A stretch of DNA of 64,000 bases from Mesorhabditis belari (taxonomy: Eukaryota; Nematoda; Chromadorea; Rhabditida; Rhabditidae). Within the stretch, counting starts at the first letter, position 1, and the number at the start of each line of letters is the position of its first letter. Location of the stretch: the NCBI GenBank assembly GCA_958450365.1, contig CAUEEP010000917.1, positions 1,140,001 through 1,204,000 of the forward strand, written 5' to 3'. The notes under the pieces were generated by a model. The model was not told where the DNA came from. It was given only the letters and a program-made list of their open reading frames with translations, and ran no database searches. The position numbers and the translations under genes were made by a program. Shown piece after piece: positions 14,687-64,000 of this stretch.

Positions 14687-17094
14687 TTACGGACATCCCA
14701 ACAGGTAATTCCCCTTTGCTGTGTGCTCGGTTGAGTGGAAATATTCTTTCCACAACTCGTTGAATTGTTTCCAATCGATTGCCATCAATAGAGTCCCATC
14801 TTTTCCCTGAAAATCGTTTTTTTTTGTTTTAAATTTGAAATACGGTAGCTTTTGGTGTCTTTTAGTCGATTGCTATACTGTAACTATAGGCTTAAAAGAT
14901 ACAGTAACTTTGGGCTCAAGTTTAATGGCTCAAAGTGCCTAGTGCGTTCCAGGATCGAACATTCGAACAACTCGATTACTGTAACTTTAAGGATTACTGT
15001 AGTTTTGAGGAGTACCGGGTAACTTTAGTATAGTATGTTTAGCTAATTTTAGCTAATTTCAACCGGTAGCTAATTTTAGCTAGTTTTTAGCTAATTCTAG
15101 CTTACGGTAGTTTTCACGTCTCATCCACGGGTTACTGTAACTCACCACAGCGAACTGATCAAAAGCATGATTTGCCGTTTCGCGATCGATCGAAAAGTAC
15201 TGCATCACTTGCACGTATTCGGCCTGATCGACGAGACGATCGCCTAAAGTTTATTGAAACTTTCACAGCTTTTACTGTGCGCTCCAGAATTCGATATTCA
15301 GCCAGTCGAATGACTGTTTCACTACAGATTACGGTAGTTTTAGAGACCATTAATTTTCCAGCTTATACAGCAAGTTTTTAAAAATTCGCCTATCATATTG
15401 TAGCCTTTCCAACTTTTACTGTGCGCTCCAGAATTAGAGAGCACTCCAGAATGCACTCCAGAATGCACTCCAATTACCATTTCACTCACCGGAAGCGTCG
15501 AATAGCGTGTACATATAGTCGAGATAAACTTTCGTCCATTTCCCGTTTCGATTCTCTTTCCACAGCGCGATCCAATCGTCCAACGATAACTGAATATACC
15601 GTTTGTTGAAGCGCATTTCGCTTAAACGCTCCAAAAACCGACCTTTCCGGCCTCGTCAATCCCGGCCGCTTGTGTCAGCGAGTACCAAATCTCGGGAAAC
15701 GCCAACTTTGCGCTGATATACTCGTGACTTCTAAATTTTCAATTTTAGAGTTTAGAATTTCAAGAAATTTTCCTTTTTCTCTTTTTTTTTACCCCATCTG
15801 GAACGCATATAAACTATTCGGAGAGTTTTAAGAATCACATTTGAACTTTGAAAGAATTGCACGGCGCTGCTCGACCCCCCAGACGAAAGCTACAGTGGGC
15901 TTTTGGGCTTTGGTCATTACCAAAGCTGCACAGCGCTGCTCGACCCCCGTACGAAAGCTACTGTGGCTTTGTTTAGGAAATTTTCATTTTCCTATCCGAT
16001 CTGGAACGCACACGAACTATTCGGAAAGTTTCAACGCCCAGAATAAACTTTTCAAAAACAAAAAGTCTAGGTGTAAAGTGTACTGAAACGGAAATTTAGC
16101 TGAAATTTAGAAATTTGAGATTTTCGAAATTTTTTCACTTCTGCAACTCGGGTGCACTCCAGCATGGCTGTGGCAACATTTGAGACAGAGGTTTTTTCAG
16201 AGAATTTTTGAAAAATTGCCGAGGTCAAGAAACGCGAGAGTTTAGCGACCCTCGTCTTTAGCTATGCGTCAGATCGGATTTCCACCCTCATAACTCTCCA
16301 TCCTGGAGCGCAGGCTAGCCGCTAGGAAATGGGGTTTTTGCAGAGAAAGCTCAAATTACGTTAGTCGGTCTTTAGGGATACTGTAGGCGTTCTAGGGTAC
16401 TGTATGGGTACTGTATGGATACTGTAGCTACAGTAGGCTGCAACGTTAATGCTTTCTTTTTAAAGCCACTCACCGACTGCCCCTTGTTGCGCAAATGATC
16501 TGCGCGAGTGTGTCGAAATCTTTCCATTCCAGTGATCCGTTTCCGTTGATGTCTGAAAAGAGGTTTGGAAATGAAAATTTCAAAAAATTCTTGAATTCAG
16601 CTTGCATTCTGGACCAGAATTGCGCCTCTTCGGTACCGAGCTCTTCGGTACTGAAGGCTTATCTTAAGCGTAACACTAACCCTTCACGACCGAAGCCTTA
16701 TCTTAAGCGTAACACTAACCCTTCACGACCGAAGCCTTATCTTAAGCGTAACACTAACCCTTCACGACCGAAGCCTTATCTTAAGCGTAACACTAACCCT
16801 TCACGACCGAAGCCTTATCTTAAGCGTAACACTAACCCTTCGGTACTGAAGGCTTATCCTTATTCTGGAGTCCACAAAACACTTTGAAATAATAAAAATA
16901 AAAAAATCTTCCATTTTCGAGAATTCGATTTTTTTTTTGATTTTCATCGATTTTCTAATTTCTAATTTTCTTAATTTCGTTTTTTATTTTTTTTTTCTGA
17001 TTTGGAACTCACCAAAGAATGTGCTAAAGGCGTAGGTCCATTTGCGAAGTAAAAACGGATTGATCTCTGCCTTTTTGCCGTTTTGTTGTCTCAT
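14687..17094 (-). CDS. calexcitin-like EF-hand calcium-binding protein
   Basis: The gene starts at 17094 ([16 protein letters not shown]) and reads [11 protein letters not shown] into exon 2 (16552-16474), which carries an EF-hand loop [13 protein letters not shown] middle exon (~15727 down) gives [20 protein letters not shown], then [18 protein letters not shown], a degenerate second EF-hand. A further exon pair builds [12 protein letters not shown], a good loop with acids at positions 1, 5, 9 and 12, followed by [20 protein letters not shown]. The last exon (~14809-14687) reads [20 protein letters not shown] and ends GCP. This layout (WxxxFxTFFDxNxNG start, ~190 residues) matches calexcitin and sarcoplasmic calcium-binding proteins, cytosolic calcium sensors or buffers. 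Near 15640-15660 the frame can only be joined by a 22-bp intron or a one-base error. Introns are packed with TACTGTA-type motifs, a 39-bp minisatellite and the 12-bp box described under findings. Confidence 0.72.
15421..15480. repeat. local run of the 12-bp box
   Basis: GTGCGCTCCAGA is followed at once by three shorter partial copies (GCACTCCAGA, TGCACTCCAGA, TGCACTCCA). This is a mini-array of the dispersed box inside an intron of the EF-hand gene. Confidence 0.7.
16658..16852. repeat. 39-bp minisatellite, five units
   Basis: Five nearly identical 39-bp units begin CTTATCTTAAGCGTAACACT and end CCTTCACGACCGAAGC, in the second-exon-proximal intron of the EF-hand gene. The unit length is a multiple of three, so it gives a spurious plus-strand ORF. 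There are no unique spacers, so it is not CRISPR-like. Confidence 0.9.
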
Positions 17095-17544
17095 TTTCGA
17101 AGTTTAACTGATTTCTGAAATTCTGAAGTTGAAAGTGCCTTCGAGGACTTCCAGGACTATCAAATTTACATTGGCATAAATGAGAATTGAAAACAAAAAA
17201 TGATTTCCACAAATGTTTTCTTGTCTAAAAAGAGAAAAATAATATCGTAGCTTGGAAAAAAAATTTTTGATTTTGATTTTGATTTTGAAAATGATTCCTG
17301 AGTGAACGGGAAATCGGGGAAATCGCTTGTGCAAACGAGTTTCCTCGTTTTTAAGAGCTCCCGGCTGTTGTTAACAAGGGAAAGCTGGGGTTTGGATAGT
17401 AAAAAAAATGCAGTTTATGATGGGCATTAAGCAGACGAAAGTTTTTGCAAGAAAATCGAGGAAATCCCCAGAAACAGATCTGATCGGCTAGCTGAGTGGG
17501 AAATGTAGATGGTGAAAATCTAAAAGCATAGCCGATTCGCGCAA

Positions 17545-18000
17545 TCTGGAACGCAGCTTAGAATCTAGACTTGTTTCGATTTGGATTGGGGACGTTTGGA
17601 TGTCATATTGTAGACGAATGCTTACCCCCGCCTTTGCTAGGTCTAGATATAAGAAATCAAGAAAAATAAAAGTTGATCTTGGCTAGCTGGATGGCACACT
17701 TGAATCTAGACTTGTTGAGATTTGAATTAGGGTCGTTTGAATTTCATACTGTAGACGAATGCTTACCCTCACCGTTCCTGGGTCTAGATATAAGAAATCA
17801 AGAAAGTTTAAAGTTGATCTTGGTTAGCTGGATGGCACACTTGAATCTAGACTTGTTTAGATTTGGATTGGGATCGTTTGAATTTCATTTTGTAGACGAA
17901 TGCTTACCCCGACCGTTGCCGGGTTTAGATATAAGAAATCAAGAAAAATAAAAGTTGATCTTGGCTAGCTGGGTGTCACTCTTGAATCTAGACCTTTCTA
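17545..18000. repeat. satellite array of ~141-bp units carrying the 12-bp box
   Basis: Three full units and a partial fourth are seen. Each has GCTGGATGGCAC (or TCTGGAACGCAG), then gaatctagacttgtt, then GTAGACGAATGCTTACCC, then TAGATATAAGAAATCAAGAA. Box positions 17545, 17686, 17827 and 17968 give a period of exactly 141 bp. This array ties the dispersed box to a tandem repeat close to nucleosome length. Confidence 0.88.
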
Positions 18001-19251
18001 GATCCGGATTGGAAGCGCTTTTTATCCAATCATAATGAGGAAGTGCTGGAAATGTGTCATTGTTGAGACCAGGCCAAGTGCTAGTCCGAAACTCAAAAAA
18101 CCCAGAGAACAGCTGGCAGTAGACTGGTCTAATCTAGATAAAAGAGGAAAGGAGAAAACGAAAAAAAAAGGAATGTTTATGATCTTAAGTGATTGGGGTC
18201 AGGTGGTGTGGGGAATCGGGGGAAATGGGGAAGTCCCGGCACATGGAAACCACGAGAACTGCTCTTGAGAGAAATTTTTGACGGAAAATTTCGATTCTGG
18301 AACGCACCCAACAATTCGATGCTTTGAAACGCTTTAAATTCGAAATTTTTAAGAAGTTGGATAACTGAGAAGGGGGAAGCCTTGAGATGAGAGCTCTGGG
18401 CTCAAGATGAGAGCTCTGGGCTCAAGATGAGAGCTTTGGGTGCTAGGTAGGGAAAAGTTTTTGATGTCAGTTTCAATTCTGGAACGCACTTAATAATCTG
18501 GTGCTTTAAAATAGCTTGAATTCGGAATTTTTGAAGAATTTGGGTAATTGAACCGGTTGTACTTGGAAAAAGCTCAAATTTGGTTTATTGGTTTAAAAGT
18601 AAAAGCGTTAAATTGTTCTGTGCGCTCCAGGAAGCCGAAGCAATCACCAAAGTAGACACACTAATTATTGGAAACAGGAAGGAAAGTTGATGATCGTGGT
18701 TGGAGGTGAGAGGGGAGGAGAGGGGGATCAGAGGGGTTGGAGGAGGGGAGGAGAAGGGGGAAGGGGAAAGGTCAGGTGGTCCGCTGAAGAGAAGGAAGTA
18801 TTGCGTCTTAAAATGTTCCAAAAAACGAAGAGAAGTTTTTCTTCTTTAAAAAGAAGTCGAGGGGAGGAAGGTCCAAAGGGAAAAAGCAAAAAAAAAGCTG
18901 GATGAAGATCAAGGATGTGAAGAAAATCGCAAAAATGAGCAAAGCGGTTTTTTGAGGAATTGGTTGTGATGGATGCACTCCAGGATTGAGAAAAATATGA
19001 GGAAAGTGAAATGGATATGATGGCTGGATGGGTATTTCGGGGGGTTGATACTGATCTGCGGTTTGGGGTCAACGGATTGACGAGTCGGGGGAAGTTCTTT
19101 CGAGTCGATTCATCAAGGGTGACGTCCAGGATTCGCGAAAACGACATAGAAACAATCGTGAAGTGAGATATTTGCGCTAGAATCTATACGAATCTCTTTT
19201 TCGAGTTGAGTTTAGAGTTTTATGGTGGCAAGTGGCAAGTGGAAAGGGAAA

Positions 19252-19490: not shown

Positions 19491-19628
19491 ATTTTGAAAA
19501 TCGCTTAAATCTGAGAGCGGATGCAGTAATTTCTGGTGGTAGAACTCGAGATTTCGTTTAACATTCGCTAACACAACTAACACGCTCATGGCTGTGATAA
19601 GATCCATTTTCACGGAGGTCTTCTGACT

Positions 19629-19708: not shown

Positions 19709-22215
19709 CCAATTTTTTGTGTCAAATTGATCTCTTTGAAAAAGAGGCTTACTGACCTTTAATATCTTACTACGGAAAGACACCAAGGCCTATAACTTAA
19801 GGCCAAAATGGTGCCCTCGTAGAGTAAAGTGATAATTTTAAACAACAACTACCTACTCAATTAGTTTAGCTACATTTTATACGATTATATAGATGTTTTA
19901 GAAAAAAACAATAATCGGGCTCTGGCCGGACCCGAACTATGATTGTTTCCCTTGAAATCCCCACTGCTTTACCCCGACGCCATCGATGAAGTGTTTTCCT
20001 TTGCTAGAGAGCACGCACGCTAAATTTCAATGCAAAAACTTTGTTGCCAAATATCTGACGATCGAGACGTCCGCAAGAAAAACTAAAAACGGATTCGGAT
20101 TCCCCGTTTCAAACTCTAGCAGGCGACCATTTTATAGGCTTAAACTCGACCCTAAGCACCAACTAGCTCCCCCTAATTAGAATGGTCGATAAGGCTTTCA
20201 AATTTTTTTCAAATTTTAGAATTTTATGCAATCAAATAGGCTTTATCTTTTTTTATTTTAGCATTAAGAATAGGTTTGTATTGAAGAAATGGTTTAAATT
20301 GGGGATCAGCATTGGCGCGCATTGGCATTGAAGTCGTTTTAAGTTTTGAAGTGCTCGGTTTTTGCGTTTTTTAAAAATCCATAAAAACAATTGCTTTCAA
20401 GAATTTCCAAAAAAACAAAAAAAAACCCATTTTTCATAGAAACAATTGGTCTTTTTTAATCGTTTAAATAGAAATTTCATAGCGATATTATTTGTAAAAG
20501 CGTTTAAAAAAATGCTGGCGACTTTCCTTGCGCTGGTTTTCCTTCAAAAATATTTCATTTTTCAATTTCAATTTCACCAAAATCTCAAAAGTATTCAAAA
20601 GATCGAGTTCAAAATTGTCGTAACTCAAAAAACTCAAAAAAAAACGTATTCTCAAATTTCTTGCGATCTTTTCAATGGAGGTAAAAAAACAAAAGAGAGA
20701 GGTGTCAAAAGCGAAAGCCTTCTTTCCCTAATCCATCAATCCCAGTTTCCTCCCCCCCCCCGCTCTGACCGATCACATTACTGTTGACATAACTTTCAAA
20801 ATTTGAGAGAAAACTAGAGTTTGGTAGCGAACGTCACAAAAAAATCGAAATTCAAAAAAATATCTGTGCTTTCATTCGATAAATAGAGAAGCTTTGCAAA
20901 ATTCGCAAAAATAAACTAACAGCTTTGAGGCCCCAAAAAAAAAAAAAGAAAAAAACGTTCGGGAGCTGATCTATCTGGGAGTCACAGTGTTGCTTGCAAA
21001 TGGAAGTGGAAGCAAATCGGTGCTAGCTAGCAAATAAAGTTTGTGATGCTATCGGGTTAAACGTTGTTCGGCTGCTAATTTGCGTCAATTCCACGGCATA
21101 GAGCAAAACGAAAAAAGTGAAAAGTTGTTATCTGGAAGGCACATCGAAATTTGGGTCAACTTGGAGAACATGGGGAGTCAATTTTTGCGGTCTGCTGTTC
21201 ACCTGAGAGCTATTTTTAAAGGTCCGACGCAAGTGGAAAAATATTTTTTTGCGTCCGGCATGATCATGCATGGGACAGGTGTGCGGTGTGCGTTCCAGGA
21301 TGAGTCAGCTGATTGCACAAAGTACAGGTTTGTGTTTTGAAAAATTAGAAAACAAGAAGGTGAGTCGAGCACTTATTGACAACGGAGGTAATTGGGGAAA
21401 ATGGTGAAAAAAAAATAGGGTGAGTCGGGTGAAATTTGAGCCAAAAAGCTATTCAGGAGGACTGGGGCAGGTGTCTTATTAAAAGCTGTGCCCCAGACGG
21501 GGTGCGTTTACCCCGAGGAGCACAAAGGACACCGCAAGTACGGTGGTGGCGTCGAGTTCGCGCCATTTTGTGGTGGTTCCTCGAACTTTTGAGGTCCAAA
21601 TTTTTTGTGTCTTTCAAGCTGGAACGCACAACGCAGGATGCGAGCAAAAAAGTGAGCTTAAAATGGGAAAAACTTCAGTGTACCAGAGAGGGTGTGCTTT
21701 TTTGAGCATAAAGCACAAAAATTTGCTGAAAAGTGAAAACTGCTCACCGCAACTTAGCCGAGAAGCCGTTTATCGTTGAACTTTTTGTAATCTCTCTCAG
21801 TTTTCTCCCAAAAATCTCAATGAGGATTTGAACCGAGAAAATTTTTCAGTAAAGAACAGAGGTCGCCTCGGGAGGAAAAAAACGTCAACTGTTCTTTTCA
21901 TTTCATTTTTTTCGCTTTTCACCTCAATCGTGTATTTTGTGCTCAAAAATGAAATGAAAACGCAGTTATTCTGGTGCAATGATGCTCGGGAAATTTCCGT
22001 GGCTTTGGATGAGCTACCGTAATCCTTGCTAAAAGTTCTAAAGGATGCTCTTGGCAAAAGCAACCGTAATCCATCCAGGCTTGGGCGATGGATTCTTAAA
22101 GCACATCCAAGTACCGTAGTCCAATTGTCATTTTTTTCAAACCTATTTGGTGTCCATCTTGAAGTAACTTGCAAGAAGTAAGCTTTTACGCAAAATACCC
22201 TCAACTGAAAAATAC

Positions 22216-22221
22216 TTTATT
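22216..22221 (-). terminator. poly(A) signal for the mog-4 transcript
   Basis: AATAAA on the minus strand lies about 210 bp past the mog-4 stop codon. It is the first good hexamer seen after that stop. Confidence 0.5.
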
Positions 22222-22431: not shown

Positions 22432-28718
<6,287 letters not shown>

Positions 28719-37639: not shown

Positions 37640-40442
37640 ATGTCCGATGACGACTCGTCCCTCGAGGAGATCCCATGGGTTCCAATTTACGTCGGACAAA
37701 AAGATCCCGACTCGTTCGCCAATCGAGAGTGGACATCGGCACCCGGTGATCGTTTCCCCTTCGACATTGTGTTAGGGTTGAAATATTTGAGCAATGTCTA
37801 CAAGGTGGTCGTCGACGTGAATCCGGAGCTCGTTCGTGAGTGCTTTTTAAAGACTTTCGTATACTTTTTTTGATCTGTCTACCTTACAGGCTTTAGAGTT
37901 ATTTGTTTTTTTGGAGTTTAGAGAATTGATTTAGCTGCGAAAATCGATGTTCAAGTGGGACGGGGTGAGCCGAATTGTGAAAACGATTTAGATGCAGCCA
38001 AAGCCGCTCACTACGGAAACAAGGGGACACTCGTTTTTAAGGTAAAAATTTAAGGAAATTCATTTCCAATGATTAAGATTGATTTTTTTGCAGATTCGCG
38101 AACGCGGAAACAACCGAATGGAGGGAAGGTTTGTAATGCGTTTTTTTTTTTCTTTTACTTAAAGGCGGAAAACCCAAGATCTTTAAAGATTAAAGATCTC
38201 TCTTCGCTGATCACGTTGGGCATTTTGTTTGGCTTATCGTTTATAAACCGTTACCGCTATCGAAAAATCCACAAAATTTGGTGAGTTGTTTTTGAGTTGA
38301 TTTAAGAGAAATCGATTTTCTAGCGATTTCTAGCGATTTCTAGCGGTTTCTAGCGGTTTCTAGCACGATTTTCTAGGTTGGCATCAATCGGGTGACAATT
38401 TTGGGCTATCCAGTGGAGAAAGATCGACCGAGAAGGGCGCCGAGCAAGAGCCGGACGAGAGGTGAGGAGGACGAGGTGGACGAGAGAATCTTGTTGATAG
38501 ATCAAAGATTTTCTTGCTGGAAAATGTTATGTGCGTTCCAGATTGAGCAAAAAATGCAAAAGAAACTTTTTACGAAAATCGTGAATGCAAATTTTCGCAT
38601 AGGGTCGAAAACGTAGTGGATCGAGTCGGAAATTTTATTGATAAAGCAGGAATTTTCTTATCGCAAAATGTTTTGTGCGTTCCAGAACGGAGAAAAATTG
38701 TGAAAATAAACGGGGAAATGCTTTAGTTTGCATTATTTTGTTTAGATCGTTCCTCATCAGCTCCGCGAAGACCACAATCGAATGGACGAGCGGGCACGCC
38801 GACGAGAATGGGAACGCCGACACGAATGAGCACTCCACAAGGATCGGAGTACGCGGTGACACGGTACAGCTAGTGGGTGATGTTGTGGTTGATGCTGTGG
38901 TTGATCCCGAAAGTGATTGAAAGTGCAACTTGAAAGTACAACTCGAAAGTACAAAATCTTTTCAGCGAAGGCGATGGGATGAGCACGAGCTCCAGCGGGA
39001 TCTCCGGTGATCCGTTGACCTCAATTCGAACGGTGAAGAGGGCTTTACAAGAGAAAATGGATGGATCGGAAGCAGTGCGTAAACGATTTGAGTTCACCAC
39101 GGATTTTCCAATATGGTTCCAATATGGTTCTACATCTGGTTCTATATATGGCTCCAATATGGCTCCAATATGGTTCCAATATGGTTCTATATATGGCTCC
39201 AATATGGTTCTATATATGGTTCCAATACGGTTCCAATATGGTTCTACATCTTGTTCTATAAATGGCTCCAATAAGTTCCAATATGGTTCCAATACGGTTT
39301 CAATACGGTTCCAATATGGTTCTACATCTGGTTCTATATATGGCTCCAATATGGTTCCAATATGGTTCCAATATGGTTCTATATATGGCTCCAATATGGT
39401 TCTATATATGGTTCTAATATGGTTCCAATATGGTTCCAATATATCTGGTTCTATAAATGGCTCCAATACGGTTCCAATATGGTTCCAATATGGTTCTACA
39501 TCTGGTTCTATAAATGGCTCCAATAAGTTCCAATATGGTTCCAATATGGTTTCAATATGCACAGTATTCCAATATGCACAGTGTTTTTAGGCGGGCAAAA
39601 ATGTCGAGGCTAGGGTTTGTCGGCGAGCGATTCAACGCTTGGAGGAGTATGAGGTAGAGCAAAAAGCTAGCTTCGCTGCCTGATTCGGTGAAATTTTTTG
39701 AATTTTTCACTAATCTGGAGTGCACGATAGGTTTTAGGCAAGAAATAATTCTTTGGTGGCGTTGTTTTTAAAATCCACTTTTTCCCTCGCTCAGACTTTG
39801 ATGCGAAATTTGTGGTATAGATTGTTTTGTTTTAAAATTCAAAAACATTTCTCGCCAATCTGGAGCTCACTATAGCAGTCACAGTAATCAGTACACATGA
39901 TTACTTTCGATTCTCTAGGTGCGCATCGAGGACCTGGCAAACCGACGGAGTAAAGCCCTCTCGGCTGGTGATACACCAGCGGTAAGCTGTCAAATGAGTG
40001 CCTGGATGCCTCAAAATCATTTCCAGGCGGAGCGCTTGAATCTCGCGATGAGCGATTGCCGGGACACGGCTTTCCGCGCGATTCACGTCGATCTGTTGCT
40101 GACGAGGAACGAGGTACGAGCCACGAAACGTTACCGAGACTGAATCTCGTTTATTCAATGGAAAAAATGATTGAATTTTTAAGAAATCCTTCTATCTGGA
40201 TAGCACATGATATTTTGGATTTGAGAAATTTGCAAAATTGAAAGGAAAATAAGTTGAAAAATGATCGGTTACGGGATCGGACTGATGACTGATTTTTCGA
40301 AAAGGAAAACTTGCCCGATTTGTTTAAAATTCTCTTATCTGGATGTCACAGAGTGTGTTGAGCTTAAGAAGAAAGCAACTTTTTCATTTTTCAGCTTCGC
40401 TCGATCGGCGTCGGGAGTCGGTGGGTCGAGGAGGAGGCATGA
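37640..40442 (+). CDS. CEP104-like centrosomal/ciliary protein, short form
   Basis: The first exon reads MSDDDSSLEEIPWVPIYVGQ, then FPFDIVLGLKYLSNVYKVVV. After further exons, ADHVGHFVWLIVYKPLP (about 38198-38280) joins VGINRVTILGYPVEKDRPRR. This order matches the N-terminal jelly-roll of CEP104 (FPQEIVLQM..., then YVDAVGQFLKLIFHQNHVNK..., NQVALVAINIIG). A Ser/Arg/Pro linker with GTPTRMGTPTRM repeats follows (38745-38862). Then come VKRALQEKMDGSEA, AGKNVEARVCRRAIQRLEEY and AERLNLAMSDCRDTAFRAIH, a coiled-coil in the position of the CEP104 coiled-coil. The protein ends LRSIGVGSRWVEEEA at 40442. CEP104 acts at microtubule plus ends and ciliary tips, but its TOG and zinc-finger domains are absent here. 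An acceptor lies ~20 bases before the ATG, and the gene follows snpc-4 on the same strand by 430 bp. The intron at 39083-39590 is almost wholly a minisatellite. Confidence 0.66.
39105..39565. repeat. CCAATATGGTT minisatellite filling an intron
   Basis: Variants of tccaatatggttctatatat and ggttccaatatggttccaat repeat for ~460 bp. Units drift in length but mostly keep a multiple of three, so both strands have long stop-free frames, which are not genes. It fits within one intron of the CEP104-like gene. Confidence 0.88.
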
Positions 40443-41060
40443 AAACGAGGGGACGAGAAATCGATGAGATTTTGCGATTTTCGATAAAAATGTTTCAGTT
40501 TTGGCTTCCAGATTGGCTAATTTACATTTAAAAATGGGTATTTTACGTGTAAATTGAGCGTCAAATCGATCGGAGAAAAATCACAGACAAAAACCTGAAT
40601 ACAGTAGATTTGCATATAAAAAGTGTCTGATTTCTGTAAAATGTCTACTGCGTTCCAGATTGGCTAATTTGCATTTAAAAATGGGTATTTTACATGTAAA
40701 TTGAACGTCAAATCGATCCGAGAAAAATCGCCCCGAATACAGTAGTTGCTACAATAGGGCGGTTATTTTTAAAAAAAAAAAGGGTTCCGATAAGGTTAAT
40801 TAAATATAAAAAAAGGGAGTTTTAATTTAAATTGGGGGGGAACGGACCGGGGAAAAAAAAAAGACAAAACCCGGATACAGTCGATTTGCATATGTGATTA
40901 CTGTAAAATGTCTACTGCGTTCCAGATCGGCTGATTTGCATTTAAAATTTTGTATTTCACATGCAAATTGCTGAAAATTGACTTTGAGAAAGCGATATTT
41001 ACAAAAAAAAACAAAATGAACAAAATGAAACGAAGGAAATGACCGAAAAATTAGCACAAA
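40443..41060. other. convergent intergenic region between CEP104-like and SLC6 genes
   Basis: It holds two to three ~147-bp units (TTCCAGATTGGCTAATTTGC, then TTTAAAAATGGGTATTTTAC, then GTAAATTGA, then CGTCAAATCGAT) starting near 40501, 40648 and, more decayed, 40915. There is also an odd homopolymer-rich stretch at 40760-40870. No gene is seen. Confidence 0.6.
40760..40870. other. homopolymer-rich segment, possible consensus error
   Basis: Runs such as aaaaaaaaaaaggg, aaaaaaaggg and attgggggggg break into a satellite-like unit whose other copies lack them. It resembles the odd segments at 7780-7860 and 9955-10125. Confidence 0.4.
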
Positions 41061-44000
41061 TCAATCGAATAGCATTTGTAGCCGACACCGTACCCGTTCG
41101 AAGGGCGTCAATTTCGCGGCGATTCTCTTATTTTCCTCGGCGATGCGCAGTGCCGCCGGGTGTTTCGGATGAACGGTGAAGAGGGCGGAGATCGGCTGTA
41201 AATTGGGGCTTTTTCTCGACAAGATCGCCATTTTTCAATGCAAATTGGCCCATCTGGGGTGCACGGGACCGTTTGAAAGCGTCAAATGTTTTTTTAATCC
41301 GCAATTTTGGTCTGGCTGACTGGGCGTACGGTATCCGGCCCAATTCACAGTCAATTTGCATTTAATAATTCATTTTTAAATGTAAATTAGCCGATCTGGA
41401 AGTCAGGTTTTTGAATGGCGTCATAAAAAACTCGAAATTCTATTGTCGGCGTTTCGTGCTGCTAAAAGGTGCTCCTTTTACCGTAGTACATATACGTCTG
41501 ACGATAAAATTTGCATTTATAAAAAATCAGACATTTGTAGAATGTTGCCTGCGTTCCAGATTGGAGAATTTGCATTTAAAAATGGATATATTATGTGCAA
41601 CTGAGGGTGAAATGGCTGCGAATTGGCTCTGTGAGCAATTACAGTAACCCGATTCACCGTAGCGTTCACAATTTTTTTGATTTCTACATTACCTCATTCC
41701 TTTGCCTGCTCTTCACAAAGTTGATCACGAAGAATGCGGGGATAAAAAGAAGAACGGAAAAGCTGAGAAACCAGCCGAAAACCTCGGTCCACATCGGGAA
41801 GATGACGTCACTGAATCGGATTCGATTGAAATTTGAGCCCAAAAATGGGAAATACTTTAGAAATTTCAATGCCAAGCGTCGATCTGGAGCACACAGTATG
41901 ATACTAGTGTACCAGAAAAGTGCGTTTACGAAATTTCACCTAGCAGTACACTACGCTTCAAATGACAAGTCTAAAAACCTCTTAGAATTTGTCTATTTTT
42001 ACTTTTTTGTACTCTGTGCGTTCCAGATCCGTGCTTTTTCATGTTTTTGGAAGGCATTCATATGTAGATTTTAGCTTAAACCGCTTGAGATCACTCTCAC
42101 TTGGGTTTCTCTCCGTATTTCATCTTTTGCGTGACTCGATCAATTCCAAGCGTCGATCTGGAGCGCACAGTATCATACTAGTGTGCCAGAAAGGCGCGTT
42201 TACAAAATTCCACCTAACAGTACACTACGCTACAAATGACAAGTCTAAAAAGCTCTTAGAATTTGTCAATTTTTACTTTTTTGTACTCTGTGCGTTCCAG
42301 ATCCGTACTTTTTCATGTTTTTGGAAAGCATTCATATGTAGATTTTAGCTTAAACCGCTCACTTTGGTGCCTCTCCGTATTTCATCTTTTGCGTGACTCG
42401 ATGCTCGACAACAGCATAGAGAATGAGCTATTGATTTTCTGAATTGAATTCCCACTAATAGCAAACCACTAACAGCCCTGGAGCCGCGTACATCCAATTA
42501 CATAAAAAGTAGAGACCAGTTGGTCCGACGATTTTCTGGAGAATCGAATTTTTCTCTCTTTTCCCGAGAATTTCCTCGAGATCACGCTTGAAGTGATGAA
42601 TGCCTAAAAAGTGGATAAAAACTACCGTAATCCTCGTAAAATGACCGTAAACATAGCAAACGAGAAACACTTCGGCTAAAATTAGCAAAACGAGCGCGAA
42701 ACCGCCGACACTCGCGTCGAACATTGTGAACCAATAGACACCGTGCTAGAAAAACGAGTTGAGAAGGAAATAGTCGCTAGAATAGTTTCTGTGACATCCA
42801 GATTGGTTTTTTATAAAACTATCAACCCAACAGGACAACAGGATTATCGATAAAACTCGAGTGTTTAAAAATCAGAAAAACGCATTTGTCCATATTAGCG
42901 TTTGGACTTTTTGAAAGCTCTGGGTAGCTGCTGTGAGTTCCAGCTTGGACTTTGGTGCAAATTTGGAGGGTGTTGTATACGGAAAAGCTAGAGTAATCGA
43001 GGGATCAAGTGAGTCACTGGATTTACAGCTGATTCTCTGGATGAAGGGTCGGCTTTCGGCTTAGCATTGGTCTATCTGGAAAGCACACTAGAGTTGGGTT
43101 GGGTTGGGTTGGGTGATTTCTTGTTTTCTCAAAATTTCTCTACCCCAGTGCACATGACGATCGTGCAAATGAACATAAAAAAGCAAAAAGCCCAATTGAG
43201 AGTTTGGCGTCGTTTCGCGAGAAATGGACTGAAATCGCATAAACAAGTGATCGTCGATTGGAGGTTTACTGAAAAGAATTCGCTTTAAAAGAGGCTTCAT
43301 TGTAGTTGTTGTTCTAGTTCTAGTTCTAGTTCTAGTTCTAGTTCTTGTTCTAGTTCTTGTTCTTGTTCTTCTTCTTCTTCTTCTTCTTGTTGTTGTTGTT
43401 GTTGTTGTTCTTCTTCTTCTTCTTCTTCTTCTTTTTTTCCAATCTTCCCCTACCAACAACAGAGCTCATTCCCAGCAACGCCAACATCAAAAAGAACAGA
43501 AACATCCACAACCATGGAAGCCACATTTCAGCTATCGCTTGCGGATAGGCGACAAAAGCCAGAGTCGTCCCTGAATGTGACACTTTAAAGGATGACTTTA
43601 AATTAAAACTTTAAAGGATGACCGGACTACCGTACTCGTAACCCATTGCAATAAATCGATTTTTGTCAAAAATGAAAATTCTATGATTCTAAACAATACC
43701 AATTTTTACATGACATCCAACTAAGAAAATCTCAAAGTTTCTTTAAAATCTGTCTACTCAAAAAAAAGTTAAGTGCATGAAAACGTTTCTAGGCGATTTC
43801 TTTCAAAAACTGCAACATTTCAACTAAAAGCTAGGGTAGGTTAGGGTGCTGGCTTAGGCTTAAGCTTAGACTTAGGCTCAGACTTAGGCTTAGGCTTAGG
43901 CTTAAGCTTAGGTTTAGGCTTAGGCTTAGGCTTAGGCTTCGGCCTATTGTAGCCTTACACTAGGCTTGTCTATCGATGCTTCAGGGCAGCTAAAGCCCCA

Positions 44001-47000
44001 TGAGCCAGATTCTAAGCCAAGTCAAGAGTCAGAGTGAAGGCAAGTCTTGACTCAAGTTCAAGGCTGAGAGGCAGAAGATAACAGAGCTGACAGGCAGAAG
44101 ATTCCCGTCTGTCTGCTTGCTGTTCTTCGGTCTGTGAACGGAGTTTTGCCCTCGTTTTGCTGTATTGTTGATGCTGACCTTCTCTAACGACTTTCTCGAC
44201 CGGTTGATTGGTTTTCACGGACAAATAGCCGAGAATCGAGAAGACGGCCACTCCGCCGAATACCGACATGAAAGCGTCGGCAAAAACGACAAAGCAAGCG
44301 TCCTAGAGTTTAGAATGATTGAAGATTGAATGATCTAGAGATCTAGAGTTTAGATGATTAAAGATCTAGAGATTAAGAGCTTAGATGATTGAAGATTTAT
44401 GGAAATACTAGTCTCACTTCAGCAATTCATTTTTTTTTATTTTTTTTTTTGAGAAAATCTAGTAAAATTTTTGCCATTCTAATAGAATGCTAGTAGAAAA
44501 AAAGCTCAACTTAGTAACTTAGTACTAGATCGACATTAGTACTAGATTTGAGGCTTCGATTAGAACATCATGAAACATCTATCTATTAAATTGGTGAATT
44601 GATACCTGCGGGACTTTGAAGCCCGCAGTTTTCAATTCAAGAATCCAATCGTTACATCTTTCTATTTACATCTTTTTATTTACATCTTTTTATTTACATC
44701 AAACATTTTACTGTAATTGCAGCTGACTTAAATGCTCACCAAAAAGCAGTTGTGCTTTCTCGGATTGAATGAAGCCATCGATGGCATTCCACCGAAACCG
44801 ATTGACAGAGAGAAACACATTTGGATTAGAGCGGATTTCCAAGTCTAAAGGAGATTGATTTGGTCATACCCTTGGCTATCTTGACACTGTTGCAACCTTC
44901 ACCCGGCAGCAACAAGACCACGGTCTCCATGTGGATCAGATTCGACCCACAGCTCTGACAGGTTAGATCAGATTAGACCCACAGCTTTACAGGCCTAGAC
45001 TCTACAGGCCTAGACTCTACAGGCCTAGACTCTATAGGCCCCAAGGCCTCTTACAGGCCCTTACAGGCCCTGAGAACTGAATCCCTGTGGAAAGAACTTC
45101 AGCTGAGATCGTAGTTACTTGATATTCTGCTAGCTTCCCGAAATCTGGACTGAAATAAGCTTTTAGGCCTTTCCCGGCGCCTTCCAGTGTCAACCCTTGC
45201 ACAAAGAGGATACCTAAACTTATTGATATTTTGAGATTTCGTGTCGAACCTCTTACCCACAATGACGTACGGAACGACAGTCGTGATGTACGAGATTTTC
45301 CCCATGAATTCAACGCCTTTCCATAGAATTACACCGCACAAAATCCACAACGCTTGCATGATCACTAGAAAGTTGGGAAATGATAATGGAGAACTGAGGA
45401 AACTGAGGGCTGCTGTGTTTTCCAGATTGGACAAAAATTTGAAAAGATTTGAAATTGGCTTAGCCACGGCTTCTAAATTGCGGAGATAAGGATTGGGTCA
45501 AGGTCCGAACGAAATTCTCGGTATTTTACTCCCCGAAATCGCTCAAAATCTTACATGACATCCAGATCGACCAAAAATTTAAAAAGATTTGAAATTGGCT
45601 TGGCCACGGCTTCGAAATTGTGGAGAAAAGGATTGGGTCAAGGTAGGAACGAAATTCTTGGCATTTTACTCCCGAAATCGCTCAAAATCTTGCATGATAT
45701 CCAGATCGGCCAAAAATTTGAAAAGATTTGAAATTGGCTTGACCAGGGCTTCTAAATTGCGGAGAAAAGGATTGGGTCAAGGTAAGAACGAAATTCTCGG
45801 TATTTCACTGCCCGAAATCGCTCAAAATCTTGCATGACATCCAGATCGGTCAAAAATTTGAAAAAAAGCGACAAATCTCAAGTTTCAACTCACCAAACAG
45901 CGGCCAATTCATGGTGATCTCTCCGCTAAAGTCTGGGCTCCTTTTGATGATGTACTGACTGAAATTTATGGTCAGAAAAGCAATTTGAGAAGAGAAAAAA
46001 ACTCGAAATAGAGCTCGGCGGGCACGATGAGATTCGTGATATTTGTAATGCAGTCTAAAATGTCGACAATTTTCTGGGTTACTGTAACCGATTTGGGTTC
46101 AGCGGTCAGAACCGCTGTCTTTGCTGTCTTACCGGTTGAATTCGAGTCACATATTGTATTCTGGAGTGCACCAAGAGAGCATACTGAAATTTGAGTCATT
46201 TTAGTGGATATAATTTTTTGGGTGTACGGTAGTTTGGTCAATTTTTAGGATTACGGTAATAAGTCGAATTTTGCTTTAGAAAACGCATTTAGAGGATGAT
46301 GTGATATCCAGATCGGCTAAAAATATGAAAATATTTGAAAGCAGATGGATGGAGGCTTTTAAAAGTCGATGGGAGAGTTTCGGGGGTTACGGTAGTTCTA
46401 GAGACTACGACAGCTTACTGTAGTTGGTTCCATGGGAGACGAATCTTTTGCTCTCACAGTTGACAATGTTTTCCCAGCCGCCAGTGACGATCTCGATTCT
46501 GAAACGACTCAGAAAAATGGCAAAAGTCTAACTACATTTAAAATCCGACTACAGTACATTCTCTGACGAAAAGCATTGCATTTAAAAGTTTAAAAGACTC
46601 AGAAAAATGTGCAGAATTTGAATAACGAGATTTCTATACGAAAAAGATTGAATTTCATTGAATTTCATTGAATTTAATTGAATTTCAACAAACTCTAATC
46701 GACTCTCTCTTGAACTTTTACGGAATGAAAGGTATTTACTTGATTATCTCAAAAATTTGCTTTTGAAAACTATAGTTCCTTTATAGTTCATATTTAGTTC
46801 CTTTATAGTTCCTTTATAGTTCCTTTATAGTTCCTTTATAGTTCCTTTATAGTTCCTATAGAAAGCTCTATATAACGAGATTTTTCTGATCTCTTCCATT
46901 CCATTACAGAGAGTCGACTTTAGTCTCATTTTGATCTCTTCCATTCCATTATCGACTTTAGTCTAATTTTGAAAGCCCTCACAAATACATAACCACCCAT

Positions 47001-48864
47001 CCAACAATCACAAAATAATAAATTGTCAATTGGGTCGACAAGCCAGCCATCGTGAAACCAATGCCTGAAATAATGGATTCAGATTCGGCAAGATTCCAGA
47101 GTACAATAGATTCCAGAACATTCTTTTTGAGGCTTCAACTAGGCCAGGCTAGTGGAAACGAATTTTGATATAAGCCTTTTTGAGAAGAGAAACCTATCGT
47201 AGTCTAGACTCAAGCCTGGACTAGAAGAGAATCTTTAGAAGCCTATAAAGAAGTTAAAGCCTCTAAGCCTCTAAAGAAGCTAAAGCCTCTAAAGAAGCTA
47301 AAGCCTCTAAAGAAGCTAAGGCCTCTAAAAAGCCTCTAAAGAAGCTCTTCTAGTGTTTCCCATTGCCAAAAGCTGGGTCAGACTGGGGAAAGCATAAAAC
47401 CAGGATTAGACCGAGATACTTCAGCTTTGCCAGGCTTGGCCTTGAAAACTTGGCTCAGATCTTGACCGATTTGATTAAGCCTTGGACCGGGAGCAAGCCA
47501 AAGACTTGCGGCAGAGCAAACCAAGCTTTTGACTTGCTAATGAGGTAGATCATCTCAGCACTGACCTTGAAACGCGGGCGCATATGTGTAGTACAGCTTT
47601 GAGGTGCCCTTTTGCACGAATTGTCCAAGTGCGAACTCGAAATAGAGCATCGGCAGGCCGAAGACAATCGAACAGCACAGATAGGGGATAAGGAAGGCAC
47701 CTGGGGGTACGGTATTTTATCCAAATTTATTTTATTTTAGAGTTACAGAAGTCAGAAAAACCCTTATCATTTGAATAACTTTATTTCTGGTGATCGAAAT
47801 TTCAAAATTCTTTCAAATTCACGTAAGCTGGATGTCACACTACGCTTTGTATTTTTTAGTTTTCTTTAAATCCAAAAAATCAGTGCACTAGAATGAGTGA
47901 GTTTGGAAAAATCCAAAGTACACGAAAATCGAATTTAACGATTTCTATTTATGTGTCGTAACCGATTATGAATGAAATTTTTTTTGGCAAATCTTTCTAG
48001 TAGAGCAATCCTTTAATGTTTGAGGACAATATTATATCATCTTGTAGCGAATTGAATTCTCCGATTATGAATGAGTGGGTCTAGGAGCGTCCAACCATCA
48101 AGTCTTTAGTCTCATTCAACGCAGAATCATTGATAATTATGTTAAATTTTTGAAATTAGCAAGATTGGATGAAAAGAAAAAAAATTAGAGCAAAAAAAAA
48201 CTGTTTGTTCAAGAGGAAACTTTGAAGTCCCATAATTTTTTCCCTTTTTATCCAATCTTTCTAATTTCAAAAATTTAACATAATTATCAATGTTTCTGCG
48301 TTGAATGAGACTAAATACTTGATGTTTGGACGCTCCTAGACCCAGTCATTCATTAATCGGCTACGACATATGCACTCACCTCCACCATTCTCGTAGGCTA
48401 ATTTGGGGAAACGCCAAATATTCCCTAAACCGACGGCAAAGCCGATACACGTCAAAATGAAAGCGGCCGAAGAAGAGAAGCGCTCTCTGCTCTCTAAAAA
48501 GTGCTCGAAAGGGTTACGGTAATAATGAAAAAGACGGAAATGATGGAAAAGCTTTCAATTTGATTTCCCATCAAAAACTTCCGAGTTTTCCGCAAAAAGC
48601 AAAAACCTTTTTTGGCAGTGAACGGGATCGAACCCGGCACCTTTGGAGTGTCGTTTACTCGACGTTTACTGTCGTTTTCTGTCGTTTACTGACGTTTGAC
48701 AAAAACCCATTGCACCATAGTAACCAAAAAACGACTTTGAACGAATATTTCTGAATTTTCAACAGTTTACCCGCTTTCTCTTCATCATTCTCGCAATCCT
48801 GGGTCTCAGTCGGATGAACGCGATGCGATTTTTTCGAATAGCGATCTTTCATCGACATCGACAT
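41061..48864 (-). CDS. SLC6-family sodium/chloride-dependent transporter (SNF type)
   Basis: The model starts at 48864 ([20 protein letters not shown]). Exon 2 carries the TM1 hallmark [20 protein letters not shown]...AYENGGG, which includes the unwound sodium-site region. Later exons give [20 protein letters not shown] with FALGQF (TM2), [20 protein letters not shown] (TM3), a Cys-containing extracellular loop, [20 protein letters not shown] (TM4), VVPYVIVG then [20 protein letters not shown] (TM5 to EL3), [20 protein letters not shown] (TM7), [20 protein letters not shown] then [16 protein letters not shown] (TM8), [32 protein letters not shown], and [20 protein letters not shown] (TM12). 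It ends [17 protein letters not shown] at 41061. Substrate cannot be told: SLC6 members carry amines, GABA, betaine or amino acids. Exon borders in EL4 and TM6 are approximate. The introns are very repeat-rich (12-bp box, telomere-like repeats, MITE, tRNA-like sequence). Confidence 0.88.
41870..42404. repeat. direct duplication of ~265 bp in an SLC6 intron
   Basis: Two copies (about 41872-42133 and 42143-42404) both contain AAGCGTCGATCTGGAGC, CACTACGCT, TTTTTGTACTCTGTGCG and TCTCCGTATTTCATC. Each copy carries the 12-bp box twice in opposite directions (41883/42016 and 42157/42300), so each looks like a small element bounded by inverted boxes. Confidence 0.85.
43307..43440. repeat. trinucleotide/hexanucleotide microsatellite (GTTCTA, CTT, GTT)
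   Basis: Runs of gttctagttcta, then cttcttcttctt, then gttgttgttgtt, then cttcttctt lie in an intron next to the SLC6 TM8 exon. They create stop-free frames of Lys/Asn or Arg/Thr that are not coding. Confidence 0.92.
43848..43950. repeat. interstitial telomere-like (TTAGGC)n tract
   Basis: About 15 hexamers, most TTAGGC with TTAAGC, TTAGAC and CTCAGAC variants, lie in an SLC6 intron. TTAGGC is the nematode telomere repeat. The tract is degenerate and internal, so it is not a chromosome end. Confidence 0.85.
44340..44720. other. intronic sequence with short direct repeats
   Basis: Repeats of tctagagattagat-type words (44275-44390) and of cttttatttacat (44660-44695) are seen. No exon could be assigned within this stretch. 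Confidence 0.4.
45415..45870. repeat. ~140-bp tandem repeat array in an SLC6 intron
   Basis: Three full units and a partial unit share CCAGATCGGCCAAAAATTTG, AAAAGATTTGAAATTGGCTT, GCGGAGAAAAGGATTGGGTC and CGAAATCGCTCAAAATCT. The box at the unit start falls at 45415, 45555, 45694 and 45834 (spacings 140, 139, 140). Confidence 0.9.
46780..46860. repeat. (TAGTTCCTTTA)n 11-bp minisatellite
   Basis: About seven copies of tagttccttta lie in an SLC6 intron. Confidence 0.88.
47950..48370. mobile_element. MITE with long inverted repeats in SLC6 intron 2
   Basis: Outer ends TATGTGTCGTAACCGATTAT and its mirror ATCGGCTACGACATA bound the element. A second copy of the end sequence lies at ~48059. The arms then pair along TGGGTCTAGGAGCGTCCAA, TTTAGTCTCATTCAACGCAG and AATTATGTTAAATTTTTGAA. 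The centre is A/T-rich without coding. The left end looks as if ~110 bp were inserted into or duplicated next to it. Confidence 0.8.
48610..48729 (-). ncRNA. interrupted tRNA-like sequence
   Basis: On the minus strand there is an A-box-like ACTATGGTGCAATGGG, then ~60 bp of a short repeat (variants of GTAAACGACAG), then CACTCCAAAGG and a B-box T arm GCCGGGTTCGATCCCG ending CACTGCCA. Stems do not close properly and the anticodon arm is disrupted by the repeat. A tRNA pseudogene or SINE head is likelier than a working tRNA. Confidence 0.35.
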
Positions 48865-48910: not shown

Positions 48911-49174
48911 TTAGGCTTAGGCTTAAGCTTAGGCTTAAGCTTAGGCTCAGGCTCAGGCTTAAGCTTAGACTTAGGCTTAGCCTTAGACTTAGTGCGAAGG
49001 CTAGCGGCTAGCGCCTCGCACTAAGTCTATTTGGGTTTGGGCTGAGCCCCCATTTTCTGGACCTCAGCCGGTTCTCGGAGCTAAGGGACACCCGTTTGGC
49101 GGTGTGCTTTGGAACCCAATGGGAGTGTGTTGAAAAAATTTCAGGTCGATTTAGGCTTAGGCTTAGGCTTAGGC
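48911..49174. mobile_element. telomere-repeat-bounded element with palindromic core (copy 1)
   Basis: TTAGGC-type hexamers at 48911-48990 and 49150-49174 enclose a core. The core begins with a near-perfect palindrome, AGTGCGAAGGCTAGCGGCTA then GCGCCTCGCACT (48991-49022), followed by AAGTCTATTTGGGT and CCCCCATTTTCTGGA. A second copy with the same order lies in a catalase intron (62983-63169). No ORF is seen. This copy lies just upstream of the SLC6 gene. Confidence 0.75.
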
Positions 49175-57080: not shown

Positions 57081-57671
57081 CTTCCGCATCAATTTTTGAG
57101 TCGTTTTCTTTAGAGAAAATCGAATTTTATATCATTTATTGGAGTTAGAATTGTAAAAAAAAATGCAATTTCGACCAAAAAACCCGTTTTTATTTTGACG
57201 ATTTTCACTCTGAAATTTCCCAAATTTCTCGCAATTTTAAGAAAGAAAAATTTTTTTTGCGTAAACTTTTTTGACTTAAAAAACTCTTTTTTACAATCCA
57301 TGAGCTCCAGGATTACGCTAGAATTATCGCTTTTTAGGCATTTACCTTGAAATATCGAGAAATTTTGAAGTCAACTCGTTTCAGTGGCGTTTTAAGATTT
57401 TCCCCATAGAATTTTCTCAGATTTCCACTAGTTTTATCGATGCTGGGTATCACTTGACCGCGGCTCAGCTAAATGGTAAAGTGATCAGCTAAATGGTAAA
57501 GTGATCAGCTAAAAGAGGTGAAAGAAAAGCCGCTTTTCACGATCAATTCAAATATTGACCCTAAGGCTGCGCTTGTGGGGAGGGAACGCTGACCCTGACT
57601 TCAATGTGCCCAATAACCCTTTTGTGATCCAGCATTTTGATCACGATTTGGGAGAATTTATGAAAACTTCA

Positions 57672-57898
57672 AATTTCTTAGCTTATCTTTATTAGCTTAG
57701 CTTTCTTAGCTTAGCTTTCTTAGCTTATCTTTCTTAGCTTAGCTCTCTTAGCTTATCTTTCTTAGCCATGCTCTCTTAGCTTTGCTCTCTTAGCTTAGCT
57801 CTCTTAGCTTAGCTTTCTTAGCTTATCTTTATTAGCTTAGTTTTCTTAGCTTAGCATTGAAGCTTATCTTTATTAGCTTTCTTAGCTTAGCATTTTTC
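57672..57898. repeat. (CTTAGCTTA/TCTTTCTTAG) repeat
   Basis: Irregular copies of tagcttagctttct and tagcttatcttt cover ~225 bp, just upstream of the catalase leader acceptor. Confidence 0.85.
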
Positions 57899-57996
57899 CT
57901 TTCCTAAGCCTTTTTCTTCTTTTTCTATTGATTAAATGTGCTCCAATTTGAATAGAATTCGATAATTTTTTCGATTTTTCAGTGAAATCAACCGAA

Positions 57997-63725
<5,729 letters not shown>

Positions 63726-63758
63726 GAAGGAAAGCGCTCAAATTAAATGCAAATGAAA

Positions 63759-63764
63759 AATAAA
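63759..63764 (+). terminator. poly(A) signal of the catalase gene
   Basis: AATAAA lies 34 bases after the stop codon. A second AATAAA at ~63833 is a possible alternative. Confidence 0.6.
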
Positions 63765-64000
63765 TGCAAAAATTTTCAAATCAACCTTTTTTATTAATTC
63801 TATTGTGATTTTTTTATAGAAATGAGTGTATTTAATAAAAAGAATTCCGTGAAACGTTGAAGCATTCGCTAAAAATCAGCTTTCATTCATTTCTGTGAGC
63901 TCCAGGATTGAGTTTCTCTATCGTTTTGAAACACATTTTTCAATCGACTTTCAAGATACTCAACCATTCTCAATTCGAATTTCTGCCGGTTCTGTTTTTT
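63765..64000. other. window tail
   Basis: A/T-rich sequence after the catalase gene with one copy of the 12-bp box (63895). No gene seen. Confidence 0.4.

What the first reader, a model, noticed from the sequence alone, without database searches (positions are those of the whole stretch)
15277..63906. A 12-bp box (about YCTGGANNGCAC) recurs ~58 times with neighbours ~142 bp apart
Hand-counted starts (±2): 15277, 15421, 15797, 16000, 16152, 16312, 17545, 17686, 17827, 17968, 18296, 18478, 18620, 18973, 21288, 21618, 38531, 38675, 39714, 39859, 40195, 40338, 40648, 40915, 41253, 41395, 41549, 41883, 42016, 42157, 42300, 42791, 42934, 43075, 45415, 45555, 45694, 45834, 46160, 46301, 47827, 57301, 59330, 59472, 59832, 60157, 60301, 60445, 61240, 61384, 61840, 61982, 62116, 62489, 62631, 63485, 63629, 63895. 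Adjacent spacings cluster at 139-147 bp. The spacing is kept when copies are direct (39714/39859), inverted (41883/42016/42157/42300), in otherwise unrelated sequence, or on either side of a catalase exon (63485/63629). A conserved short box in a fast-diverging, nucleosome-length repeat resembles the CENP-B box in alpha satellite. It could be a protein-binding site, a nucleosome-phasing signal, or the relic of one dispersed satellite.
Basis: partly seen in the sequence, partly recalled or inferred. Interest (0 to 1): 0.9.

Follow-up and report, generated by a model that had tools for sequence, protein, structure and literature searches.

The report
Twelve-base box marking nucleosome borders
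In a nematode genome, hundreds of copies of a short DNA box sit at fixed one- or two-nucleosome intervals in DNA that is often otherwise unlike, as if the sequence itself spelled out where nucleosomes and a box-binding protein must sit along certain chromosome regions.

Summary
Confirmed, and stronger than reported. The window (a nematode; 207.6-Mb assembly) holds 78 boxes; 264 kb around it hold 793, about 8.5 expected. Spacing is quantised: of 284 non-redundant units 184 lie at 138-146 bp, 5 at 147-149, 44 at 150-155, 16 at 161-165, direct and inverted alike. Gaps of 180-280 bp are rare (12 of 749); a second class lies near 290-340 bp. Beside each box the DNA carries the classical nucleosome pattern: AT-rich dinucleotides peak about 15, 25, 35, 45 and 56 bp from the midpoint between boxes, which is GC-rich (202 non-redundant units). 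Other contigs repeat this. The box core diverges about a quarter as fast as its spacers. My reading: a protein-binding site at the nucleosome entry/exit that sets a sequence-written nucleosome lattice over regional chromosome domains. It works like a CENP-B box or a pairing-centre motif, but fails the CENP-B letter test. Binding protein, domain function and species are unknown; no chromatin data exist here; remote common ancestry of many units is not excluded.

The parts
8460..8615 (-). Two boxes (12-mers starting 8460-, 8604-), 144 bp apart
   Evidence: weight-matrix hits listed
14942..19130 (.). Box cluster: 14942-,15277-,15421-,15439-,15451-,15797+,16000+,16152-,16302+,16864+,17001+,17545+,17686+,17827+,17968+,18296+,18478+,18620-,18973-,19119- (each 12 bp). 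17561-18012 is a local tandem array of period 141
20974..21629 (.). Boxes 20974+,21131+,21288-,21618+ (157, 157 and 330 bp apart by start)
23843..23854 (+). Single weaker box
38531..43086 (.). Box cluster: 38531-,38675-,39714+,39859+,40195+,40338+,40501-,40648-,40915-,41253+,41395+,41549-,41883+,42016-,42157+,42290-,42791-,42933-,43075+; includes the alternating inverted run 41883/42016/42157/42290
45415..48809 (.). Boxes 45415-,45555-,45694-,45834-,46160+,46301-,47827+,48798+; 45421-45864 is a local tandem array of period 140
57300..63906 (.). Box cluster: 57300-,57442+,59163+,59330-,59472-,59832+,60157+,60301+,60320+,60445+,60464+,60745-,60901-,61240+,61384+,61680-,61840-,61982-,62116-,62489+,62631+,63485+,63629+,63895-; 60147-60501 is a local tandem array of period 144
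42022..42162 (.). Example of one inverted box-to-box unit (centre to centre 141 bp), read as one nucleosome with its dyad near the middle
   Evidence: spacing; WW/SS pattern of 202 such units (inferred for the single case)

Best explanation
The box (about YCTGGANNKCAC, constrained over some 16 bp) is the binding site of a sequence-specific protein that sits where DNA enters and leaves the nucleosome. Between two neighbouring boxes the DNA is written to wrap one nucleosome (centre-to-centre about 142 bp, or one or more helical turns longer) or two (about 294, 304, 315, 326 bp), with a dyad about 71 bp from each box. Boxes therefore act as borders and rulers that lock nucleosomes in translational and rotational register over regional chromosome domains of hundreds of kilobases. 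Shown: the box, its constraint, the quantised orientation-independent spacing, the phase-locked nucleosome sequence pattern, the regional clustering. Inferred: that nucleosomes really sit there, that a protein binds the box, and that box occupancy leaves room only for a short (about 120-bp) or partly unwrapped particle, because 142 bp is less than a full 147-bp core. The domain's purpose is least certain: a pairing-centre-like or centromere-like chromosome function is my leading guess.
For: Spacing quantised near 142, 152, 163 and 173 bp in units without detectable relatives and in 284 non-redundant units of 120-199 bp: 3 at 120-129, 7 at 130-133, 0 at 134-137, 184 at 138-146, 5 at 147-149, 44 at 150-155, 10 at 156-160, 16 at 161-165, 3 at 166-169, 8 at 170-174, 4 at 175-199. 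With the main peak left out, the best period between 6 and 20 bp is about 10.8 bp (147-180 bp, n=96, Rayleigh p about 2e-7), and 10.75 bp for the 280-350 class (n=142, p about 1e-7). Gaps of 180-280 bp: 12 of 749 against 287 under a shifted exponential. WW peaks at about +-15, 25, 35, 45 and 56 bp from the midpoint, SS in antiphase, GC-rich centre; 0 of 100 rotated controls reach the power; the same in 40 relative-free units, on 233 free sides of boxes and in two-nucleosome gaps, in the window's own 78 boxes (0 of 500 random draws), and around 111 boxes on other contigs. Non-box CTGGA sites show none (447 sites). Core mismatches 162/4362 (3.7%) against spacer 14937/107901 (13.8%) in 486 self-alignments (sums of the bins). 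Alleles: 0 of 270 core changes against 89 of 7930 overall. Genome-wide: 4930 direct pairs 130-160 bp apart against 6 for the reversed control. Regional: all six ATCCTGGAGCGCAC on C694 lie in 1.078-1.261 of 1.56 Mb; 25 of 38 copies of AATTCTGGAACGCACA lie on two contigs of 1.46 Mb together.
Against: No chromatin or protein data. A 10-bp WW rhythm also exists in box-free DNA of the block, so only its phase-locking is special. 342 of 471 units have a relative at E<=0.01, so duplication is a main source of copies and counts are not independent. Only 107 of 761 inter-box segments have no relative at E<=0.05; of these 70 lie at 130-180 bp, 28 at 280-350 and 3 at 180-280, and the 28 alone give only p about 0.03 for helical phasing. 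On other contigs 12 of 98 gaps are under 130 bp, most of them on C77. Small sets of part-matching sites (8-62 sites) gave amplitudes of 0.02-0.05, through small numbers or decayed boxes. A weak strand-specific consensus is left in non-redundant units. The allele test expects only 3 changes, so zero is weak (p about 0.05). In the closest self-alignments (under 5% spacer divergence) the core/spacer ratio is only 0.57. The genome-wide control at 200-230 bp and the inverted-pair searches did not complete. Neighbouring full 147-bp nucleosomes would overlap at 142 bp.
Confidence: 0.66

Rival explanations
1. Relic of one old, much diverged satellite or dispersed repeat. The box marks a recombination, amplification or transposition signal, and the 142-bp interval is inherited from the ancestral unit rather than maintained.
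For: 342 of 471 units have relatives in the block; true tandem arrays of period 140, 141 and 144 occur in the window; weak strand-specific consensus of 1.2-1.6 bits per side; in Meloidogyne a conserved box lies at some monomer junctions (PMC3694981, abstract, one section read).
Against: Neutral drift from 142 would smear the spacing; instead there are valleys at 147-149 and 166-169 and peaks one helical turn apart. Inverted pairs keep it (106 of the 284 non-redundant units). Two-unit gaps peak at 314-315, not 284, and 155 of 185 gaps of 250-380 bp hold no decayed box scoring 5 or more. Conservation is concentrated in the box. Related unit pairs differ by 0-4 bp (294 of 336) or 8-9 bp (26), rarely 5-7 (5).
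Confidence: 0.22
2. Meiotic pairing centres: the box is the site of a HIM-8/ZIM-like zinc-finger protein, and its domains pair and move chromosomes in meiosis (a domain function, compatible with the lattice).
For: C. elegans pairing centres are 12-base motifs enriched at one end of each chromosome (PMC9071541, section read); here a 12-bp box clusters in domains, several near contig ends (C548 3.27-3.85 of 3.96 Mb; C563 1.02-1.22 of 1.35; C701 mainly 1.70-1.78 of 2.01).
Against: C569 has its main domain at 1.54-1.86 of 3.76 Mb, away from a contig end; no chromosome-specific variant was shown; one-nucleosome spacing is not, to my recall, a known pairing-centre feature; no HIM-8/ZIM homologue was looked for.
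Confidence: 0.25
3. Centromeric (CenH3) chromatin with a CENP-B-like or Meloidogyne-like box between short centromeric nucleosomes (a domain function, compatible with the lattice).
For: 142 bp minus a box of about 20 bp leaves about 121 bp, the DNA that I recall a CENP-A core protecting; [quoted passage not shown] CenH3-associated repeats with a conserved 19-bp box are reported for Meloidogyne (PMC9673304, passages).
Against: CENP-B letters not met; genes lie inside the block, the catalase exon 18 bp from a box; the nematodes described in what I read are holocentric, and in C. elegans CENP-A is not tied to repeats (PMC9071541, passages).
Confidence: 0.22
4. A looping protein that joins neighbouring boxes, with helical phasing but no nucleosome.
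For: Quantisation near the helical repeat is what looping predicts.
Against: Looping alone does not forbid 180-280 bp, nor give a WW pattern with a GC-rich midpoint.
Confidence: 0.06

Closest known systems
CENP-B box in human alpha satellite / mouse minor satellite
   Same: Short conserved box in nucleosome-length units, in the linker between particles
   Different: Here many units are not alignable, orientation is free, spacing is quantised in helical turns, and the essential bases are not met
Meloidogyne CENP-B-like box and CenH3-associated 19-bp box
   Same: Nematode; short box kept among divergent repeat families. The published CENP-B-like box was called so at 10-12 of 17 matches; the present consensus reaches 10 of 17 in one register, which random 40-mers also reach
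   Different: Those are satellite families (eleven divergent satDNAs; five families with the 19-bp box); here hundreds of units in regional domains. The 19-bp box paper was not held, so its letters were not compared
C. elegans pairing-centre motifs (HIM-8/ZIM)
   Same: 12-base motif clustered in chromosome domains of a nematode
   Different: Nucleosome-quantised spacing is not mentioned in what I read; binding protein unknown here
Nucleosomes positioned by 10-bp WW periodicity, and PATCs, in C. elegans
   Same: 10-bp WW rhythm with SS in antiphase (PMC7706728, passages)
   Different: There tied to promoters or introns; here phase-locked to a 12-bp box in arrays

Membership tests
CENP-B box satellites | Essential bases of the CENP-B box (pattern recalled) | tested here: not met
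   No box tested (793, less any cut by the block's ends) reaches 8 of 9 essential bases (best 7), against 3 random 40-mers; mean 5.5 against 5.1
CENP-B box satellites | Overall match to the 17-bp box | tested here: inconclusive
   Consensus 10 of 17 in one register; mean best match 9.0 around boxes against 8.8 in random 40-mers, both up to 12
CENP-B box satellites | One conserved box per nucleosome-length unit | tested here: met
Satellite DNA | Head-to-tail homologous tandem units | tested here: inconclusive
   Some arrays and many related units exist; 107 of 761 inter-box segments have no relative in 264 kb at E<=0.05, and 106 of 284 non-redundant units are inverted
Meloidogyne 19-bp CenH3 box | Box letters and CenH3 association | not testable with these tools
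   Paper not held; no ChIP data
Pairing-centre motif arrays | Clusters of a short motif in particular chromosome domains | tested here: met
   Searches (first 100 of 175 and of 112 places listed; all 38): concentrated on a minority of contigs
Pairing-centre motif arrays | One chromosome end; HIM-8/ZIM binding | not tested
   No chromosome map; no HIM-8/ZIM search was made
Nucleosome-positioning DNA | WW at minor-groove-inward positions, SS in antiphase, about 10 bp, symmetric about the dyad (recalled) | tested here: met
Nucleosome-positioning DNA | Nucleosomes mapped in vivo or in vitro | not testable with these tools
   No chromatin data

The most novel reading that the evidence does not exclude
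A chromosome-scale chromatin lattice written in DNA largely without sequence homology: a short box plus one- or two-nucleosome, helically quantised spacing plus rotational phase are the selected features, and almost nothing else is. The box protein and nucleosomes form a special repeated particle (box-bound linker with a core shorter than 147 bp) that marks domains for a chromosome-level function such as pairing or kinetochore assembly.
Probability: 0.4. Interest if true: 0.95.

Novelty: new variant of a known kind. Interest (0 to 1): 0.86.

Why it matters
It would be a natural case where the nucleosome ruler can be read from sequence alone. The rarity of 180-280 bp gaps, the helical steps and the WW pattern predict dyads almost to the base. 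It also offers a clean test of whether boxes such as the CENP-B box are kept because they fix nucleosome register rather than because of satellite descent, and it names chromosome domains in which to look for nematode pairing or centromere function.

Tried and rejected
Second motif GCTACNGTAAYC: enriched in the block (484 hits), but its exact form lies on many contigs, including ones with few or no boxes listed (first 100 of 706 places), and WW phase around it is weak (0.009-0.012 against 0.049 and 0.097); not made part of the finding. Search for another motif in the middle of 290-345-bp gaps: mainly A-rich words. Decayed middle boxes as the reason for long gaps: true of a minority only. CENP-B essential bases: not met. 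Rfam at gathering thresholds: nothing in the window. Box letters in the paper library: 57 papers hold one of six 11-mers; the 20 listed look unrelated by title. Genes: 1 of 10 window reading frames given to Pfam matched (Catalase-rel). Species: not identified; the best-scoring relatives of the ERI-1-like protein at window 29182-30642 are Caenorhabditis proteins at 38-42%; a second reading frame gave nothing; the COX1 family search did not complete. No print of this lattice was seen in searches (listings, with passages of a few papers); that is not proof of absence.
Full report
WHERE. The window is C694:1140001-1204000 of an unnamed 207.6-Mb assembly in 714 contigs. An ERI-1-like exonuclease gene (29182-30642, minus) has Caenorhabditis proteins as best-scoring relatives at 38-42%, followed mostly by other nematodes, and TTAGGC arrays occur, so this is a nematode; the species was not identified. 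I fetched 200 kb next to the window and worked on the joined 264-kb block, plus 65.7 kb from other contigs (chosen because a box search hit them) as a check.

THE BOX IS REAL. With up to one mismatch it occurs 63 times in the window against 3.5 in shuffles. A weight matrix refined on the block finds 793 boxes against 8.5 in Markov sequence, 78 of them in the window. Constraint covers about 16 bp, with CTGGA, G/T, CA and C strongest. Genome-wide the exact 12-mer occurs 4498 times against 71 for the reversed control. Boxes fill long stretches of the block (commonly 13-23 per 4 kb) and are absent from others, among them the ERI-1 gene.

SPACING. Neighbouring boxes in the same orientation mostly lie 139-146 bp apart with a smaller class at 151-157; inverted neighbours show 138-144 and 149-155. 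After removal of related units (blastn), 284 non-redundant units fall as 3 (120-129), 7 (130-133), 0 (134-137), 184 (138-146), 5 (147-149), 44 (150-155), 10 (156-160), 16 (161-165), 3 (166-169), 8 (170-174), 4 (175-199); 106 of the 284 are inverted, with peaks at the same lengths and relatively more at 150-155 (32 against 42 at 138-146; direct pairs 12 against 142). Without the main peak the strongest period between 6 and 20 bp is about 10.8 bp (n=96), and for gaps of 280-350 bp 10.75 bp (n=142). Only 12 of 749 gaps under 700 bp lie at 180-280 bp, against 287 for a shifted exponential; in the window alone it is 4 of 77. The second class peaks at 314-315 bp, not at twice 142, and 155 of 185 gaps of 250-380 bp contain no decayed box scoring 5 or more. 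Among 336 related unit pairs the lengths differ by 0-4 bp in 294, 8-9 in 26 and 5-7 in 5. The strictest set, 107 segments without any relative at E<=0.05, has 70 at 130-180, 3 at 180-280 and 28 at 280-350 bp; its two-nucleosome class alone is too small to prove phasing (p about 0.03).

NUCLEOSOME PATTERN. Centred on the midpoint between boxes, 202 non-redundant units of 137-147 bp show WW peaks at about 15, 25, 35, 45 and 56 bp on both sides, SS in antiphase and a GC-rich centre; the 10-bp power is 0.26 against at most 0.012 in 100 rotated controls. These are, from general knowledge, the places where the minor groove faces the histones. Forty relative-free units show the same. Measured from the box, peaks at about 14, 26, 35, 46 and 56 bp recur in the nine gap classes examined and on 233 free sides, in the window's own boxes (0 of 500 random draws) and around 111 boxes on other contigs. 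CTGGA outside boxes gives nothing (447 sites, amplitude 0.004-0.006 against 0.049 and 0.097 at boxes; GCAC outside boxes, 879 sites, 0.006-0.011); sets of 8-62 part-matching sites gave 0.02-0.05, through small numbers or decayed boxes. A 10-bp rhythm as such is also present in box-free DNA here; the phase-locking is what is special.

CONSTRAINT. In 486 self-alignments that span a box the nine core positions differ in 162 of 4362 and the spacers in 14937 of 107901 (sums over the bins; ratio 0.27 pooled, 0.57 in the closest bin); these alignments are not independent. Two haplotype contigs (C159 and C569) differ at 89 of 7930 sites and at 0 of 270 core sites, where about 3 are expected. The box carries about 21 bits, the spacer 0.17-0.22 bit per position of which 0.05-0.09 is sampling bias. 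In 278 non-redundant units a W/S phase model explains 2.6-3.5 bits per side and a strand-specific consensus a further 1.2-1.6 bits, so a distant common origin of many units is not excluded.

DISTRIBUTION. Rare box variants cluster. Of CGATCTGGAACGCAC (first 100 of 175 places listed) most lie on C159, C491, C548 (only 3.29-3.85 of 3.96 Mb), C569 (only 1.54-1.86 of 3.76 Mb), C640, C668 and C688. ATCCTGGAGCGCAC (first 100 of 112 listed) has six copies on C694, all at 1.078-1.261 of 1.56 Mb, but also single copies on many contigs. AATTCTGGAACGCACA (all 38 listed) has 25 on C491 and C688, 1.46 Mb together. Segmental copies inflate such counts. Direct pairs 130-160 bp apart number 4930 genome-wide against 6 for the control, tandem arrays included; the 200-230-bp and inverted genome-wide searches did not complete. 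On the other contigs sampled, 56 of 98 gaps lie at 130-180 bp, 13 at 280-350, 1 at 180-280 and 12 under 130 bp, most of the last on C77.

MECHANISM. One or two nucleosomes fit between boxes, rarely one and a half; the dyad lies about 71 bp from each box; changes come in helical turns so that rotation relative to the box is kept. The simplest reading is a protein bound to the box at the nucleosome edge that fixes register. Because 142 bp is shorter than a full 147-bp core, a bound box leaves room for about 120 bp of wrapped DNA, which recalls CENP-A-type or partly unwrapped particles; that step is inference. What the domains do is open; pairing-centre-like and centromere-like functions both fit what is known of nematodes and can be tested.

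NEAREST KNOWN. See Closest known systems and Membership tests. The arrangement works like a CENP-B-box satellite, but the essential CENP-B letters are not met; the consensus reaches 10 of 17 in one register, a level that the Meloidogyne papers call CENP-B-box-like and that random 40-mers also reach. The spread over often non-alignable, freely oriented units has no match in the passages and listings that I saw.

Noticed in passing
264-kb block C694:1060001-1324000; genome: A second motif, about GCTACNGTAAYC, has 484 weight-matrix hits in the block, often 60-80 bp from a box in about 10-bp steps; 706 exact AGCTACAGTAACC genome-wide against 8 reversed, partly in short tandem runs.
   Followed up: partly
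window 28165-28590: A dispersed element of roughly 400 bp with 39 further copies listed at 91-97% identity (only the best candidates were scored) and ends that match each other in reverse; probably a short DNA transposon (inferred). No box falls in it.
   Followed up: no
window 43851-43943, 48911-48992, 62989-63056; genome: Interstitial TTAGGC (nematode telomere-type) arrays in the window and long ones inside contigs.
   Followed up: no
window 15421/15439/15451, 60301/60320, 60445/60464: Box doublets or triplets 12-19 bp apart, breaking the one-nucleosome rule.
   Followed up: no
C159:317001-325000 and C569:1546001-1554000 (L056, L057): Two apparent haplotypes of one box domain, 1.1% apart; their two larger indels (11 and 23 bp) lie in box gaps over 700 bp.
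   Followed up: partly
window 8618-8796: CTTTAAGG minisatellite starting within 20 bp of a box.
   Followed up: no
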